Shown piece after piece: positions 13,788 to 21,465 of a DNA stretch of 64,000 nt. A program made the translations under genes and the position numbers. Under the pieces are notes generated by a model. That model was not told where the DNA came from. It worked only from the letters and a program-made list of their open reading frames with translations, and searched no databases. The number at the start of each line of letters is the position of its first letter. Positions within the stretch are counted from its first letter, which is position 1. Source of the stretch: an uncultured Granulosicoccaceae bacterium (GTDB lineage Bacteria > Pseudomonadota > Gammaproteobacteria > Granulosicoccales > Granulosicoccaceae); the NCBI GenBank assembly GCA_938003855.1, contig CALKXD010000218.1:1-64000 (forward strand). Direction: 5' to 3'.

Positions 13788-14840
13788 ATGGCCGGTATAA
13801 CACTCAAAAATGTCAACAAGCGCTGGGGCACATTTGTTGGCGTCAAAGATTTTGATCTCGACATAGCAGATCAGGAATTTCTGGTCTTACTGGGTCCGTC
13901 CGGGTGCGGTAAAACCACCACCATGCGCATGATCGCCGGGCTGGAAGATGTTACCGAGGGCGAAATCTATATCGGTGATCAATTGGTCAATAACCTCGAG
14001 CCCAAGGACCGTGATATTGCCATGGTTTTTCAGTCCTATGGCTTGTACCCGAACATGACCGTGTGGGAGAACATTCGTTTTCCACTGAAAATACGCAAGA
14101 TCGATCCCGCCACACACGAACAACGCGTGCAGCGTGCGGTTGATATGGTCGAGTTGCAGGAGTTTGTCCATCGGCGGCCGGCTGCATTGTCCGGTGGCCA
14201 GCGCCAACGCGTGGCGCTGGCTCGGGCAATCGTGCGTGAGCCGACGGTGTTCCTGATGGACGAGCCTTTGTCCAACCTGGATGCAAAGTTGCGCGTGTCT
14301 ACTCGTGCGCAAATTAAAAACCTGCAGCACGAACTACAAACCACCATGATCTATGTTACTCACGATCAAATAGAAGCCATGACACTGGCGGATCGTGTGG
14401 TGGTGATGAATCAGGGCGTCATGCAGCAGGTGGCCACACCGCGCGAAATTTACGATAACCCCGCCAATACGTTTGTTGCAGGGTTTATGGGTACACCGGC
14501 GATGAATCTAATCAACGGCTCGCTCGATAACGGTGTGTTTCGCGCTGACCGCATAGAGATTGGAGGATTAAAACAGCAGCACTCTGGTCCGGTGACGCTG
14601 GGTTTTCGGGCCGAGGACGCCGCGCTCAGCCAACAGCCGGCGCAGATTGCTGCACCGGTCTATTCGCTGGAGCTGCTCGGTGAGTCTTCGATGGTCACCA
14701 TGCGGGCAGGGGGGACGATTGTCGCGATTAAGGCAGATAAAGACTACACAGCTCAAATAGGCGATGGCGTGCATGCGACAATTCCTGCATCGATTTGCCA
14801 TTTGTTCGACATCGACAGCGGTGAGCGGCTGTCCGGTTAA
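13788..14840 (+). CDS. ABC sugar transporter ATPase (MalK/UgpC type)
   Basis: 350-residue cytoplasmic ATPase energising the importer. Walker A GPSGCGKTTT (about 36-45), Q-loop MVFQSYGLYPNM, signature LSGGQRQRVALARAI, Walker B VFLMDEPLSNLD and H-loop IYVTHDQIEAMT are all intact. A C-terminal regulatory TOBE-like region (about 235-350) follows, as in MalK and UgpC. It is the last gene of the transporter operon; a 250-base gap separates it from the formylglycine-generating enzyme on the same strand. Confidence 0.9.
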   Translation: MAGITLKNVNKRWGTFVGVKDFDLDIADQEFLVLLGPSGCGKTTTMRMIAGLEDVTEGEIYIGDQLVNNLEPKDRDIAMVFQSYGLYPNMTVWENIRFPLKIRKIDPATHEQRVQRAVDMVELQEFVHRRPAALSGGQRQRVALARAIVREPTVFLMDEPLSNLDAKLRVSTRAQIKNLQHELQTTMIYVTHDQIEAMTLADRVVVMNQGVMQQVATPREIYDNPANTFVAGFMGTPAMNLINGSLDNGVFRADRIEIGGLKQQHSGPVTLGFRAEDAALSQQPAQIAAPVYSLELLGESSMVTMRAGGTIVAIKADKDYTAQIGDGVHATIPASICHLFDIDSGERLSG

Positions 14841-15091: not shown

Positions 15092-15979
15092 GTGAGTGAA
15101 AACAACCCGCCAGCAAGCGATGATTGCATCGTCGATATAGAGTCCGCCCGTGCTTTTATCGGCACGGCCAGCGCACTGATTTCAAAAGATGGTGAAGCAC
15201 CATTGCGGCGGCAGACTCTGCCTGCCTACCGGATCGAAAAAACCACGGTTTCCAATCAACGGTTCGAACACTTTGTCAACGACACAGGCTATGTTACCGA
15301 GGCTGAAGAAATCGGCTGGTCATTCGCTTTTTTGTCACACCTTCCTTCCCCTGAAAAACATGATCAGCGAGCCGCCGACGCGCAGTGGTGGCGGCAGGTA
15401 GAGGGGGCGAACTGGCGCTGCATTAACGGGCCGCAGTCCGAGTCTGACTGGCGGCCTGATCATCCGGTGGTACAGGTATCCAAACGGGACGCTGACGCCT
15501 TTGCCAGCTGGGCTGGCGGCCGGTTGCCAACCGAGGCCGAGTGGGAACACGCGGCCCGTGGCGGTCTGGGTGATGTGCGTTTTCCGTGGGGGGATCAGGA
15601 GCCGGACGACGATAACTTCCAGCCCTGCAACATCTGGCAGGGGCGGTTTCCGCACCACAACCTGGCACTTGACGGCTACCCGGCAACCGCACCTGTGAAA
15701 TCGTTCGACCCAAATGGTTACGGGCTTTACAACATGTGTGGAAACGTATGGGAATGGACTGCGTCCCCCTTTAAATTGCGTTCACTAAGTGCACGGGCCA
15801 GAAAAAAAGAACGATCCTCGAAAAACTATTTCACCATGAAAGGCGGCTCTTTTATGTGTCATAAGAGTTACTGCTTTCGCTACCGGATTGCCGCCCGAAG
15901 TGGCACTTCAGCGGACAGTGCCACCTCTCACCAGGGGTTCAGGCTGGCCTACGATTCCAACACCACTGCAGCGGCTTGA
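15092..15979 (+). CDS. Formylglycine-generating enzyme (sulfatase-modifying factor)
   Basis: 295-residue FGE-sulfatase domain protein. True FGEs oxidise a Cys in the CxPxR motif of type I sulfatases to formylglycine using O2 and copper. The catalytic pair is present in the C-terminal motif GGSFMCHKSYCFRYRIAARSG as Cys256 and Cys261, which separates real FGEs from the many look-alike domains lacking them. Other family blocks are RLPTEAEWEHAARGG (144-158), FPWGD and GLYNMCGNVWEW. The start is a GTG; no strong Shine-Dalgarno sequence is seen. No sulfatase lies in this window, so the client is encoded elsewhere. Position after a sugar importer suggests sulfated glycan use. Confidence 0.9.
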   Translation: MSENNPPASDDCIVDIESARAFIGTASALISKDGEAPLRRQTLPAYRIEKTTVSNQRFEHFVNDTGYVTEAEEIGWSFAFLSHLPSPEKHDQRAADAQWWRQVEGANWRCINGPQSESDWRPDHPVVQVSKRDADAFASWAGGRLPTEAEWEHAARGGLGDVRFPWGDQEPDDDNFQPCNIWQGRFPHHNLALDGYPATAPVKSFDPNGYGLYNMCGNVWEWTASPFKLRSLSARARKKERSSKNYFTMKGGSFMCHKSYCFRYRIAARSGTSADSATSHQGFRLAYDSNTTAAA

Positions 15980-17831: not shown

Positions 17832-17992
17832 ATTTCAGTCGCCGTTAGTTAGCAGTCTTATGTGTATCGTATCTTAGACTGAAAATCCAGCGGATCGAGT
17901 GCTCGACAGGATGAAACTGGCGCGAGTTGGTATACTTTCGGTGCCCGGTGAATAAATCCGCACAACGCGTCACGGCAGTCAAAGGAGGAACC

Positions 17993-18739
17993 ATGGAATT
18001 ATCCGGTAGCCCGATGAGCAAACGTCAGTTTAATTATCGCGAAGTTTATCGAAGCCGTATTGCCACCTGGTACAACGGCTATGTCCATGTTGCCCTTATT
18101 TATCTGATCGGGTTCGGGTCAATATTTGTCTATGCTAGCCATATTGAGCAAGTCTCCCGGCTTGAATGGATGATCGTCCCGCTGGTGTTTTTACTGGCCA
18201 ATTTTTTTGAGTGGTTCCTGCACGCGCAGATCATGCACCGGCCACGAAAAAATCGCGCCCTGAAGGCTATTTACACGCGACACACGCTGATGCATCACCA
18301 GTTTTTCACAGAAACTGAAATGCGTTTTGCCAACCCGACTGACTGGCGGGTAACGTTTTTTCCACCCTATGCGCTGATCGTATTTATTTTGATGTCGGTT
18401 CCGCCGGCTTTGATCGTTGGTTTTGTGTTTTCAGCCAACGCCGGTTTTTTACTGATGTGTACGACAACGGGTCTCTACCTCATCTATGAATTCATGCACT
18501 TTTGCTGTCACATCGATGACAACTGGTTTGTGCGATACTGTCCGCTGGTCAATACCCTGCGCCGCCACCATACCGCACACCACAATCAGTCGATCATGAT
18601 GAACCAAAACATGAATCTGACATTCCCGCTATCAGACTGGCTGTTCGGCACCTCTGATCTTGATCGTGGATTGCTTGGCACGTTGTTCAACGGTTATAGC
18701 ACGCGCTACAAAAAACAACCGGACGACAGTAAACGCTAG
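17993..18739 (+). CDS. Fatty acid hydroxylase/sterol desaturase-superfamily membrane protein
   Basis: 248-residue integral membrane di-iron-type protein. It has about four hydrophobic spans (for example VALIYLIGFGSIFVYASHI and ALIVFILMSVPPALIVGFVF). His clusters expected for the di-iron site are present: EWFLHAQIMH, YTRHTLMHHQFF, EFMHFCCH and LRRHHTAHHNQ. The superfamily hydroxylates or desaturates lipids, carotenoids or sterols using O2. The frame is open upstream, but AAGGAGG at 17982-17988 places the start at the ATG at 17993. It converges on the reductase gene, 37 bases downstream. The substrate is unknown. Confidence 0.8.
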   Translation: MELSGSPMSKRQFNYREVYRSRIATWYNGYVHVALIYLIGFGSIFVYASHIEQVSRLEWMIVPLVFLLANFFEWFLHAQIMHRPRKNRALKAIYTRHTLMHHQFFTETEMRFANPTDWRVTFFPPYALIVFILMSVPPALIVGFVFSANAGFLLMCTTTGLYLIYEFMHFCCHIDDNWFVRYCPLVNTLRRHHTAHHNQSIMMNQNMNLTFPLSDWLFGTSDLDRGLLGTLFNGYSTRYKKQPDDSKR

Positions 18740-18776: not shown

Positions 18777-19715
18777 CTAAATGTCCAGCGTTATCCGGTC
18801 TCCGGCACTACCGGAGACACAGGGGGTAATCCATTGATTGCGATCAGCAGCAGGCATTGTCAGGTCACGATGCAGCGGACTGCCGGCCGTCCACCGGCAT
18901 TTGCATTCCAGACACACTCCGCCTTCGCAGGAGGCCGGTGTTTCAACACCGGCAGCACGTAAGGCCTGTAGCATGGTTTGTCCTTCCGCTACTGTGATAA
19001 TACGGCCGGTCTTTGCCAGCGCTACCTCATAGGCCGGGTCGGCGTTGGTATTCAGGCCAAAGTGTTCAATGTGCAAACGATCACCCAATTGATCCGCGTA
19101 ATTTTCGCAGGCACTGATCATTCGTGCCGGACCACAGCAGTACAGGTGGGTTTCGTCATCAAGGGTTGTGATCAGATTTTCTATATCCAGACGGCTGCCG
19201 TCATCGCTGAAGTGCAGGGTATACGATGTGTCAGGTAGCAATGTCGCGAGGTGATCAGCAAACGGTGCTTTATCTGCACTGCCGGCGCAGTAATGCAAAT
19301 GCCAGGGCCGATCTGATTCACCAAGTGTGTGCAAGGTGGATAAAAACGGCGTGATACCAATGCCACCCGCCACCATCACTAACGGGGAGACGGTATCTAT
19401 CGGGAACGTATTGCGCGGCAGTGACAACAGCAACGGGTCTCCGACGCTGATCTGGTCATGCAACTCTATTGATCCGCCACGACCTGTGGCGTCTTTCTGT
19501 ACGGCTATCTGATACGCAGTACTGACAGACGGGTCACCGCACAGGGAATACTGTCGAATGCTGCCTGAAGGCAGATGGACATCCACATGCGCACCGGCGC
19601 TGAACGGTGGCAACGGCCAGTGGTCGACATCTGTTAAATGATAAGTCCGTACCTCTGAGTCAAGGTGGTCGATGCGGTTCACAACAACGCTCACGCGATG
19701 GATGCTTTTAACCAT
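18777..19715 (-). CDS. Phthalate-dioxygenase-reductase-family oxidoreductase (flavin, NAD, 2Fe-2S)
   Basis: 312-residue electron-transfer protein. The domains run in order: flavin-binding barrel (about 1-105, with RQYSLCGDP as the RxYS flavin motif), NAD-binding domain (about 108-220, GGIGITPFLSTL and YCCGPARMI), and a C-terminal plant-type ferredoxin. The 2Fe-2S ligands are CEGGVCLECKC plus a later Cys in WITPCVSG. It passes electrons from NADH to a partner oxygenase or reductase. The MOSC gene ends only 3 bases upstream, which makes the MOSC protein the likeliest partner; no Rieske oxygenase subunit is nearby. Confidence 0.88.
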   Translation of the reverse strand: MVKSIHRVSVVVNRIDHLDSEVRTYHLTDVDHWPLPPFSAGAHVDVHLPSGSIRQYSLCGDPSVSTAYQIAVQKDATGRGGSIELHDQISVGDPLLLSLPRNTFPIDTVSPLVMVAGGIGITPFLSTLHTLGESDRPWHLHYCAGSADKAPFADHLATLLPDTSYTLHFSDDGSRLDIENLITTLDDETHLYCCGPARMISACENYADQLGDRLHIEHFGLNTNADPAYEVALAKTGRIITVAEGQTMLQALRAAGVETPASCEGGVCLECKCRWTAGSPLHRDLTMPAADRNQWITPCVSGSAGDRITLDI

Positions 19716-19718
19716 GAC

Positions 19719-20186
19719 TTACTCCGGCGCGATAGTGTCGTTCAGAAAGATCCGGCCGCCTTCAAGGATGCGGGCGTTGAGGCCGGCACGGTGCAGCAGC
19801 ACGTCGTAGAGGGGCAGGCCGGTGATCTGCTCTATGTGTCGGCATGGCGTCGACAGCCGGGTTCCCTCGACCAGTGTCTCACCGACGCGAAACCTGACGC
19901 CCACCAGATGATTTAACGGAACCCCTTGGGTAGTGACGTTGCGACGATGATCCTGTGCGGCCAGTGTAATATTGTGGTCACGAGCCAGCGCCTGTAGGGT
20001 TTCCAGTTCGAAAAAGGTGATTTGCCGGCCGTCTTCCGGTCGATCCGAATGAAACGCGTCACCGGTGGTGTGGCGATCGCCGACGATGCCGACAGCGCTG
20101 ATCAGTTCCAGTTCGCCGACATTGCGCATCGGCAGAAATGATCGCGGTACTACATGCAAGCCGTGGATTGTGCCGGTCCAGGTCAT
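19719..20186 (-). CDS. MOSC-domain (molybdenum cofactor sulfurase C-terminal-like) protein
   Basis: 155-residue single MOSC domain from the ATG at 20184-20186; upstream in-frame codons lack family resemblance. Visible motifs are GIVGDRHTTGDAF, GRQITFFELETLQAL, DHRRNVTTQGVPLNHLVG, and RLSTPCRHIEQITG, whose Cys is the candidate molybdenum ligand. MOSC proteins such as YiiM, YcbX and mARC reduce N-hydroxylated bases and related compounds and need an electron donor. Here the donor is probably the reductase encoded 3 bases downstream. The domain is shorter than YiiM or YcbX and has no fused ferredoxin. Confidence 0.85.
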   Translation of the reverse strand: MTWTGTIHGLHVVPRSFLPMRNVGELELISAVGIVGDRHTTGDAFHSDRPEDGRQITFFELETLQALARDHNITLAAQDHRRNVTTQGVPLNHLVGVRFRVGETLVEGTRLSTPCRHIEQITGLPLYDVLLHRAGLNARILEGGRIFLNDTIAPE

Positions 20187-20337
20187 TGATCGATGCCCCC
20201 CTGATCGGAAATGCATCAAGCATGCATTACATTGTGTGTTTTTGCCAGCCGTATATGATAACCGTCTGTGCTGCCACAACCAGCCCCCGGCCAGGGAGAG
20301 GGGCGAGCTTAATCATCAGTCATTGTTGCACCGTTTG

Positions 20338-21465
20338 TCAGCAGCCATTACTGTTAATCTCTTTGTGGATCAGTGCAAAGGCCGCCGGAGACAATTGGTG
20401 TGCGTGGTGAGTATCGTCCATCACCACCTTGAATTTTCCGTCGCCGATCCGTTCGACGGTGCTGGCTATGACCGGCTCGTACACCTCTGTGTAGTGGCCC
20501 TTATGGTAAGCGGGATCATACTTGTTGTGAATTTGAAAGTGCTTTCGTCCTGTGCCGCTGGATGCCAGCACATACATGTCGAAATGATTTACCTGGCTGT
20601 AGAGCGCCGGGGTATTTTGCTCGTAGTCGTCAAGCTGCGCCCCCTTGATGAAAATAGGAGTGGTGCCCGCCACTGAATAGCTATCGTTGATGCGGTCGTC
20701 CACCGCTGCTGCGATTGTCGCCGACCAGCCTCCCCCTGACATACCAAATATACTGACGCAGTCGTAGCTGTTGTCCGCCAGAATCCGGTTCAGCGCAACG
20801 ACAACCGGCTCTACAAAGTACTGAACAGGGATGCCTTTGTCGGGTGTCAGATACATGAACTGATTGTGGGTCGAGAGCTGGATATTCCCGATGTTGGGGA
20901 CATTTACCACCGGCCGGCTGTTATAACCATACAGCGGCATCGATACCGTCAGCACGGCATAACCGTCCTGCAGAAACGGCGAGATGAAAGGCGATGCATA
21001 GCGGAAACCGCCGCCGTGTGCGCCGTGGTAAATCACCAGCTTTGACGCATTGCCGGATTTCGGTAGAAACAAATGCATGCGGGCCTGCAGGCCAAAGTCC
21101 ATATCGTGGACGTATTCGTCAACCTGCCCAAGTCCTCTGAAGTTACGGTAGATTGACGTGGCGGCGTTTTCATTCAGTTTAGCACGTTCCTGCGGGTAGC
21201 CATCCTCGCCCCATAGTACGGTTTTTAATTTGTCTCTGATCAGCGCCACATCAGCCGGGCTCTGTACCTGCACAAGCTGATTTATATCTGTTTCAACAAT
21301 AGGCTCTCTGTACCCGCCGGAGTACGAGCCACCGGCAAACTTCTGATAGACCGACTTGGCCAGATGATATGGGGGCAATTCAAGCTTATAGGCAATTAGC
21401 CCATAGCCGACCGCCATTGCCAGTAGACCAAACGAGAGAATACTAACCGCTATAAATTTCAGCAT
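20338..21465 (-). CDS. Membrane-anchored or secreted alpha/beta hydrolase
   Basis: 375-residue protein with one N-terminal hydrophobic segment (about 3-26, LKFIAVSILSFGLLAMAVGYGLIAY), acting as signal anchor. The catalytic domain shows IYHGAHGGGFRYA (about 145-157, oxyanion-type HG loop) and the nucleophile elbow IFGMSGGGW with Ser243. A late DDTHHAHQLS supplies a candidate His. The bond cleaved is unknown. It is the last gene of the polysaccharide operon, 110 bases after the flippase gene. A role trimming, deacylating or modifying the surface glycan outside the cytoplasm is plausible. Confidence 0.7.
   Translation of the reverse strand: MLKFIAVSILSFGLLAMAVGYGLIAYKLELPPYHLAKSVYQKFAGGSYSGGYREPIVETDINQLVQVQSPADVALIRDKLKTVLWGEDGYPQERAKLNENAATSIYRNFRGLGQVDEYVHDMDFGLQARMHLFLPKSGNASKLVIYHGAHGGGFRYASPFISPFLQDGYAVLTVSMPLYGYNSRPVVNVPNIGNIQLSTHNQFMYLTPDKGIPVQYFVEPVVVALNRILADNSYDCVSIFGMSGGGWSATIAAAVDDRINDSYSVAGTTPIFIKGAQLDDYEQNTPALYSQVNHFDMYVLASSGTGRKHFQIHNKYDPAYHKGHYTEVYEPVIASTVERIGDGKFKVVMDDTHHAHQLSPAAFALIHKEINSNGC

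What the first reader, a model, noticed from the sequence alone, without database searches (positions are those of the whole stretch)
18777..20186. MOSC protein paired with a phthalate-dioxygenase-type reductase
A stand-alone 155-residue MOSC domain with a conserved candidate Mo-ligand Cys is encoded 3 bases upstream of a flavin/NAD/2Fe-2S reductase. YcbX has a fused ferredoxin and mARC uses b5 plus b5 reductase; a split MOSC plus PDR-type reductase would be a compact two-gene N-reductive molybdoenzyme system.
Basis: partly seen in the sequence, partly recalled or inferred. Interest (0 to 1): 0.5.

Follow-up and report, generated by a model that had tools for sequence, protein, structure and literature searches.

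The report
Paired MOSC protein and flavin reductase
Two adjacent bacterial genes, one for a small molybdenum-cofactor-type protein and one for a reductase that would feed it electrons from NADH, are nearly always found together in related bacteria, often beside uptake genes and a regulator, so they probably form a two-part enzyme that strips oxygen from a compound still unknown.

Summary
A 155-residue MOSC protein (19719-20186, minus strand) lies 3 bases before a 312-residue phthalate-dioxygenase-reductase-type (PDR) flavin/NAD/2Fe-2S protein (18777-19715).

The pairing is not local chance. A PDR-type reductase directly follows the MOSC gene in 84 of 86 related loci. In a draw of 398 phylum genomes, 8 of 10 genomes with a close MOSC homologue (own included) have it; 0 of 59 loci with remote homologues do (one place twice; two with under 200 bases downstream). 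Gene gaps have median 0, the two families diverge in step, and two Rieske oxygenase queries found none in the 86 loci.

The MOSC protein models as a MOSC fold nearest YuaD, YiiM and mARC1, keeps the invariant cysteine, and lacks the YiiM 3-alpha and MOSC_N domains. An XRE-cupin-type regulator is near in 72 of 86 loci and a transporter in 75, suggesting a dedicated metabolic role; the window lacks these neighbours.

Most likely an NADH -> flavin -> 2Fe-2S -> Mo reductase for an N-oxygenated compound. YiiM-type MOSC-reductase fusions are known, so this is a split variant. Substrate, Mo binding and electron transfer are untested.

The parts
19719..20186 (-). Short MOSC protein, 155 aa, only a MOSC domain; invariant Cys115 (candidate Mo ligand), N83 and R54 at positions that contact Moco in a published E. 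coli YiiM model
18777..19715 (-). PDR-type reductase, 312 aa: flavin-binding RxYS motif, NAD-binding GGIG motif, C-terminal plant-type 2Fe-2S domain (C263, C268, C271, C299)
19716..19718 (-). 3-base gap between MOSC stop and reductase start; in 90 homologous pairs the median gap is 0 bases, 30 of them with a 4-base overlap
20187..20337 (-). Gap upstream of the pair that would have to hold its promoter; one weak sigma-70-like match at its edge (20341-20312), total matches no more than chance

Best explanation
The two genes encode one two-component enzyme. The reductase takes electrons from NADH onto its flavin, passes them one at a time through its own 2Fe-2S cluster, and hands them to a molybdenum cofactor held by the small MOSC protein at Cys115. 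The reduced Mo then removes an oxygen atom, most likely from an N-oxygenated small molecule (N-hydroxy compound, oxime, amidoxime or hydroxamate). Shown here: the genes, their motifs, the predicted fold, and their near-constant pairing. Inferred from the MOSC and PDR families: cofactor binding, electron path and N-O chemistry. Inferred from the neighbourhoods of relatives: the substrate is usually imported, and uptake and reduction are probably controlled by an XRE-cupin regulator, so the role is a dedicated metabolic step rather than general repair of base analogues.
For: PDR directly downstream on the same strand in 84 of 86 loci (6 plasmid loci and the best 80 of 140 genome places). In a draw of 398 phylum genomes, 8 of the 10 genomes with matches of 150 bits or more (own included) have the pair, and 0 of the 20 weaker loci that were fetched; 0 of 39 remote loci from the relatives and class searches (two of them, L007 and L029, have under 200 bases downstream). 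Gene gap median 0, 88 of 90 within -20 to +30 bases. Distance matrices of MOSC and reductase correlate, r = 0.72 over 42 non-redundant pairs, 0 of 2000 permutations as high. The separated reductase of the exception L081 falls inside the partner clade. 2Fe-2S motif in 90 of 92 partners, the other two (L062, L098) being cut near contig ends, and RxYS in 91 of 92. Fold: VIA Z 18.0 to YuaD 1ORU, 16.5 to YiiM 5YHH, 15.5 to mARC1 7P41. The genome has moaA (386.5 bits) and moaE (119.8 bits) matches, so probably makes the cofactor. Two Rieske oxygenase queries hit none of the 86 loci nor the window. XRE-type regulator in 72 of 86 loci, mostly at the operon border. The review read says that all MOSC proteins assayed in vitro show N-reductive activity (PMC10637980, passage).
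Against: No biochemical evidence at all: Mo binding, complex formation and activity are untested. Two close homologues lack a neighbouring reductase (L145, L146), and L110 has none in 13.5 kb. The correlation of distances partly reflects shared descent. In the window itself no regulator or transporter is adjacent, so the metabolic context is borrowed from relatives. The review warns that it is uncertain whether N-reduction is related to the biological function of MOSC proteins (PMC10637980).
Confidence: 0.65

Rival explanations
1. The MOSC protein is a sulfur carrier or Moco-handling protein, as MOSC domains were first read, and the reductase activates or repairs something else; they are co-transcribed but not one enzyme.
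For: MOSC domains were first described as predicted sulfur carriers in metal-sulfur cluster biosynthesis (title of the 2002 paper seen in a reference list; PMC10637980 section 4). The only NCBIfam match is a MoaC/MOSC protein, far below its cut-off (30.2 against 457 bits).
Against: Pairing is with one group of redox partner; identified neighbours among relatives are transporters, a regulator and catabolic enzymes. MOSC and reductase diverge in step. A systematic search for Moco genes in the neighbourhoods was not made.
Confidence: 0.12
2. The reductase serves a Rieske-type oxygenase encoded elsewhere, as PDR-type reductases commonly do, and the MOSC gene is an accessory passenger.
For: PDR-type proteins commonly feed oxygenases (established knowledge; Klebsiella and Phaeobacter plasmid examples). 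The own genome has 9 further matches to the reductase.
Against: Two query oxygenases hit none of 86 loci and not the window, while the same queries hit 4 of the 29 loci fetched by the reductase search. In the reductase tree 39 of 42 partners plus the detached L081 reductase form one group without the other 23 unpaired reductases (support 92); the three remaining partners, of the more distant MOSC subgroup, group with three unpaired reductases.
Confidence: 0.1
3. It is a detoxifier of mutagenic N-hydroxylated bases, equivalent in role to YiiM/YcbX.
For: Same superfamily and presumed chemistry; YiiM and YcbX protect E. coli from 6-N-hydroxylaminopurine (PMC3831636, start of abstract; PMC5818509, passages).
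Against: Sparse distribution, frequent linkage to uptake systems and an XRE-type regulator, and occurrence on plasmids suggest a specialised substrate; the genome already has three other MOSC genes. The window copy itself has no such neighbours, so this is not excluded for it.
Confidence: 0.13

Closest known systems
YiiM-type MOSC fused to flavin/2Fe-2S reductase ('MOSC and FAD-binding oxidoreductase domain-containing protein'; UniProt Q89NR8 named in PMC10637980; Rhizobium johnstonii RL_RS32145)
   Same: MOSC plus a reductase with flavin, NAD and 2Fe-2S domains in that order; presumably the same electron path
   Different: One chain; YiiM-type MOSC with a 3-alpha domain; reductase part only 29% identical over 309 aligned positions. 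Here two genes and a MOSC protein without the 3-alpha domain
mARC with cytochrome b5 and NADH-cytochrome b5 reductase
   Same: MOSC Mo enzyme fed by NADH through a flavoprotein and a one-electron carrier (literature)
   Different: mARC has a MOSC_N domain and uses a separate heme carrier; here a single reductase carries flavin and 2Fe-2S
YcbX with CysJ, and the Vibrio YcbX that carries FAD and ferredoxin domains
   Same: MOSC plus flavin plus 2Fe-2S electron chain (literature)
   Different: Ferredoxin fused to MOSC, MOSC_N domain present; in E. coli the flavoprotein is CysJ, borrowed from sulfite reductase
Bacillus subtilis YuaD (1ORU)
   Same: Nearest solved fold (Z 18.0, rmsd 2.5, 154 aligned, 18% identity); MOSC domain alone
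   Different: No partner reductase mentioned in the passages read
Phthalate dioxygenase reductase (2PIA) and PDR/VanB family
   Same: Nearly the whole reductase aligns, E = 7.4e-53; same cofactor motifs
   Different: Known members serve oxygenases (established knowledge); these lie next to a MOSC gene and no oxygenase was found nearby with two queries

Membership tests
MOSC superfamily (PF03473) | MOSC domain above curated cut-off | tested here: met
   28.1 bits, cut-off 22.7
MOSC superfamily (PF03473) | Invariant cysteine | tested here: met
   C115, 92 of 92 paired and 59 of 59 unpaired homologues aligned
MOSC superfamily (PF03473) | MOSC beta-barrel fold | tested here: met
   Predicted model only: pLDDT 87, pTM 0.85; YuaD Z 18.0, YiiM 16.5, mARC1 15.5, unrelated rows at or below 8.6
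MOSC superfamily (PF03473) | Binds Moco and reduces N-oxygenated compounds | not testable with these tools
   needs protein
YiiM subfamily | C-terminal 3-alpha domain (PF03475) | tested here: not met
   Not found in the window MOSC; found in E. coli YiiM and in the Rhizobium fusion
YcbX / mARC subfamilies | MOSC_N domain (and ferredoxin domain in YcbX) in the same chain | tested here: not met
   155 aa, MOSC domain only
YuaD-like small MOSC | MOSC domain alone, long beta3-beta4 loop in place of the 3-alpha bundle | tested here: inconclusive
   MOSC domain alone and YuaD is the top structure, but the loop is modelled with low confidence at 43-50 and its role was not tested
PDR/VanB reductase family | Flavin (RxYS), NAD (GGIG) and C-terminal plant-type 2Fe-2S parts in that order | tested here: met
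   Pfam gives no separate flavin domain for the window protein, the motif and the 2PIA alignment do
PDR/VanB reductase family | Electron donor to an oxygenase | tested here: inconclusive
   No Rieske oxygenase found in 86 loci or the window with two queries; one elsewhere in the genomes is not excluded

The most novel reading that the evidence does not exclude
A dedicated catabolic MOSC enzyme system: a short MOSC protein with its own PDR-type reductase forms the committed reductive step for imported N-oxygenated nutrients, switched on by an XRE-cupin sensor and combined with interchangeable transporters. In a few loci it would reduce an oxime or nitrone to an imine that a neighbouring ornithine-cyclodeaminase/ketimine-reductase-family enzyme (L055, L059, L065, L051) turns into an amino acid. 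To my knowledge (not searched exhaustively) this would be the first MOSC system whose natural substrate could be read from its gene context.
Probability: 0.3. Interest if true: 0.75.

Novelty: new variant of a known kind. Interest (0 to 1): 0.48.

Why it matters
MOSC proteins are among the commonest molybdenum enzymes (in about 79% of Mo-using bacteria, PMC10637980 section 4), yet the same review says it is uncertain whether N-reduction is related to their biological function, and the 2018 YiiM structure paper says YiiM's electron partner had not been identified (PMC5818509). A short MOSC protein with its own NADH-type reductase, tied by gene order in relatives to a regulator and uptake systems, makes both the electron path and the natural substrate directly testable.

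Tried and rejected
Sequence search of solved structures with the MOSC protein alone gave nothing at E <= 1; the fold search was needed.

Looked for a local metabolic context in the window: none of the neighbours typical of relatives is adjacent. One search finds only weak matches (20.9-28% identity), among them a TRAP-like pair at 60.3-63.2 kb; the nearest is an ABC-type ATPase match at 13.8 kb. Recent horizontal origin by base composition: GC of the pair 0.562 against 0.545 for the window, not distinctive, although in 13 other genomes of the genus and 34 of the family the best match is 34% identical or less.

Promoter-like sites near the pair are at chance level (2 against 1.7 in shuffles); terminator-like sites exceed chance (5 against 1.5), but none lies just after the pair on its own strand.

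Literature: searches for MOSC with YiiM and reductase, operon, oxidoreductase and fused, phthalate dioxygenase reductase (0 papers), molybdenum or vanillate O-demethylase oxidoreductase (top 20 of 2,224 seen), catabolism, transporter and gene cluster, Bradyrhizobium, hydroxamic, 'MOSC and FAD-binding oxidoreductase' (0 papers) and YiiM electron transfer since 2019: no title or abstract start listed describes this pair. The library holds open-licence papers only; the Kozmin 2010 CysJ paper is not held.

Large ORFs over the transporter region of Bradyrhizobium-type loci (clusters c24, c35) looked at first like fusions with MOSC. One c35 example (L086) has no Pfam hit outside MOSC, one c24 example (L083) none at all, and a translated search puts the MFS transporter over the same stretches, so I read them as spurious frames. 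No MOSC-PDR fusion in one frame was seen in the pairs checked.

Pyruvate kinase matches of the fold search (Z 8.6 or less, about 85 residues) are partial barrel matches and were set aside.

Full report
What is there. On the minus strand, 20186-19719 encodes a 155-residue MOSC protein and 19715-18777 a 312-residue reductase; stop and start are 3 bases apart. Pfam gives MOSC at 28.1 bits (cut-off 22.7) for the first, and Fer2 and NAD_binding_1 for the second. The reductase aligns over nearly its whole length with phthalate dioxygenase reductase 2PIA (E 7.4e-53) and with the reductase part of a cytochrome P450 protein, 6KBH (E 2.2e-53). The gene downstream (17927-18739) converges on the pair and matches the fatty acid hydroxylase family; the gene upstream (20338-21465) has no Pfam hit and lies next to ORFs that read, by eye, like surface-polysaccharide genes. 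Neither looks related to the pair.

The MOSC protein. With a 52-row alignment of close relatives AlphaFold2 gives pLDDT 87 and pTM 0.85, weak only at 43-50. Foldseek's best match is B. subtilis YuaD, then YiiM structures and mARC1; VIA-align gives Z 18.0 (YuaD, rmsd 2.5, 154 aligned), 16.5 (YiiM 5YHH), 15.5 (mARC1 7P41), with unrelated rows from 8.6 down. Pfam finds no YiiM 3-alpha domain in it, while it finds that domain in E. coli YiiM and in a Rhizobium MOSC-reductase fusion. The YiiM structure paper names C120, N87, R55, Q115, R117 and S118, among others, as contacts in a Moco model (PMC5818509, passages). In a pairwise alignment C115, N83 and R54 of the window protein fall on C120, N87 and R55; R110, S112 and T113 fall on Q115, R117 and S118. 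C115 and N83 are present in 92 of 92 paired and 59 of 59 unpaired homologues; R54 in 92 of 92 and 46 of 59; R110 in 91 of 92 and 8 of 59. So a Moco site is plausible, with some residues typical of the paired clade. The pairwise alignment is at low identity and the mapping is approximate.

The reductase. The seven reductases first aligned share RxYS and the cluster cysteines, and GGIG. Over 92 partners (window included) the motif C-x4-C-x2-C-x(20-40)-C is present in 90; in the two others, L062 and L098, the gene runs to or near the contig end. RxYS is present in 91 of 92, and a strict [AS]GGIG[IV]TP in 79 of 92. That the flavin is FMN and the donor NADH is recalled from phthalate dioxygenase reductase, not tested.

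Is the pair conserved? A protein search of plasmids gave 107 records with the MOSC protein. Of six neighbourhoods fetched, five carry annotation and all five show a PDR/VanB oxidoreductase next; the sixth, unannotated, has it too. A scan of the species-genome collection with a MOSC alignment gave 140 confirmed places, of which the tool kept the best 80; the other 60 were not seen. Among 86 loci (80 plus 6) the reductase follows directly on the same strand in 84. Exceptions: L081, where a reductase lies within 3.4 kb on the other strand and falls inside the partner clade, and L110, where a search at E <= 10 found none in 13.5 kb. Because the scan started from paired proteins it is biased to close kin, so an even draw of 398 genomes of the phylum was searched with the profile: 62 genomes matched. 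Ten genomes have a match of 150 bits or more, the window's own included; 8 of these ten have the reductase next to it (7 of 9 without the own genome), L145 and L146 being the two without. Of the weaker matches 20 were fetched and 0 of 20 have it; the rest were not read. Of 39 remote loci from the relatives and class searches, 0 have it within the flanks held. In these 59 remote loci, two (L007, L029) have under 200 bases downstream, so they say nothing, and L152 is the same place as L006. Gaps between stop and start, measured in 90 pairs (L070 dropped for want of a start codon), have a median of 0; 88 lie between -20 and +30 and 30 are 4-base overlaps. The two outliers are L064 (+45) and L092 (-472, probably a wrong start chosen by the script).

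Do they evolve together? Over 42 non-redundant pairs the distance matrices correlate at r = 0.72; none of 2000 permutations reached this. Shared ancestry contributes to this figure. In the MOSC tree 39 of 42 paired rows plus L081 and L110 form one group (support 99), and the next group up holds all 42 with L145 and L146 (support 95). In the reductase tree 39 partners plus the L081 reductase form one group (support 92); the three partners of the second, more distant MOSC subgroup fall with three unpaired reductases (support 80). One origin of the pair with few losses fits but is not proven; both are quick trees without bootstrap.

What surrounds it elsewhere. Translated searches with one query each over the 86 loci found relatives of an XRE regulator in 72 (26-100% identity; ORF clustering adds L049, L066 and L069, making 75). 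Pfam was run on one representative only and gave HTH_3 and Cupin_2. Its position is mostly at the border of the operon: to the left on the opposite strand in 48, directly after the reductase in 20 on the same and in 4 on the opposite strand, with two other placements (L050, L087). Uptake proteins of different kinds are near: a metabolite/H+ symporter of the shikimate-transporter type in 40, TctC-type binding proteins in 19, TRAP binding proteins in 17; 75 of 86 loci have at least one transporter hit, and 67 both regulator and transporter. In three marine alphaproteobacterial loci (L055, L059, L061) there are a urea-type ABC transporter, an amidase (in L055 matching PRK07488 indoleacetamide hydrolase at 558.7 bits, cut-off 532) and an alpha/beta hydrolase, and in L055 and L059 also an ornithine-cyclodeaminase-family and a threonine-dehydratase-like protein. 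Another set has an acyl-CoA dehydrogenase, a CoA transferase and a thiamine-diphosphate enzyme (13-15 loci). Some counts include distant hits of 25-35% identity, several neighbours gave no Pfam hit, and many loci are Bradyrhizobium, so these figures are rough and not independent. The common factor is import plus reduction of some compound. In the window these neighbours are missing.

Could the reductase serve an oxygenase? Two ring-hydroxylating oxygenase subunits used as queries hit none of the 86 loci and not the window, but hit 4 of the 29 loci from the reductase search (L174-L202). Two queries cannot cover all oxygenases.

Can the host make the cofactor? Its genome holds matches to moaA (386.5 bits, cut-off 284) and moaE (119.8 bits, cut-off 23.4), and three more MOSC genes; the remaining Moco genes were not checked.

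Known relatives. The review by Struwe and co-workers (PMC10637980; section 4 read in full, passages elsewhere) describes YiiM-like proteins with MOSC, 3-alpha, flavin and 2Fe-2S domains (Q89NR8) and Vibrio YcbX proteins with FAD and ferredoxin domains. A Rhizobium johnstonii protein of the first kind has 586 residues and all these domains; its reductase part is 29% identical to the window reductase. The window pair therefore probably works like these, with the parts on two genes and a different MOSC subtype. None of nine literature searches (listed under Tried and rejected) showed a description of the split pair.

Judgement. The two-component reading is well supported by genomics; molybdenum, electron transfer and substrate are not shown. 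I put the whole statement (Mo reductase of N-oxygenated compounds with this electron path) at 0.65, and a dedicated catabolic role with an imported substrate at 0.3.

Noticed in passing
L049 3965-5419 (CP099135.1, E. coli IncY plasmid, cattle-farm floor sediment): The MOSC-PDR pair, with an MHS-type transporter and an XRE regulator, sits near a site-specific integrase and an IS26 transposase on an E. coli plasmid; megablast found no such DNA in the complete E. coli genomes collection.
   Followed up: partly
L046 1030-1722 and L172 3965-4666: In Ruegeria and Phaeobacter another MOSC gene (about 230 aa) lies next to a MarR regulator, in the same neighbourhood as a PDR/VanB reductase gene; possibly a second, YiiM-type MOSC-reductase association.
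   Followed up: no
L145 1477-1968 and L146 1492-2115: Close MOSC homologues without a neighbouring reductase; they lack the PRxFLPM motif near the N terminus that most paired proteins share, but the paired subgroup L147-L150 lacks it too.
   Followed up: partly
window 15092-15979: Formylglycine-generating-enzyme/EgtB-type protein (PF03781, 231 bits) near an ABC-type ATPase ORF at 13788-14840; not related to the pair.
   Followed up: no
window 20338-21465: 375-residue protein with an N-terminal hydrophobic stretch and no Pfam hit; weak NCBIfam similarity to a putative quorum lactone hydrolase (20.6 bits, cut-off 182).
   Followed up: no
own genome G000: C132, C26, C211 (L001, L002, L003): Three further MOSC genes (193, 284 and 160 aa ORFs), so the host has at least four MOSC proteins.
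   Followed up: partly
   Followed up: no
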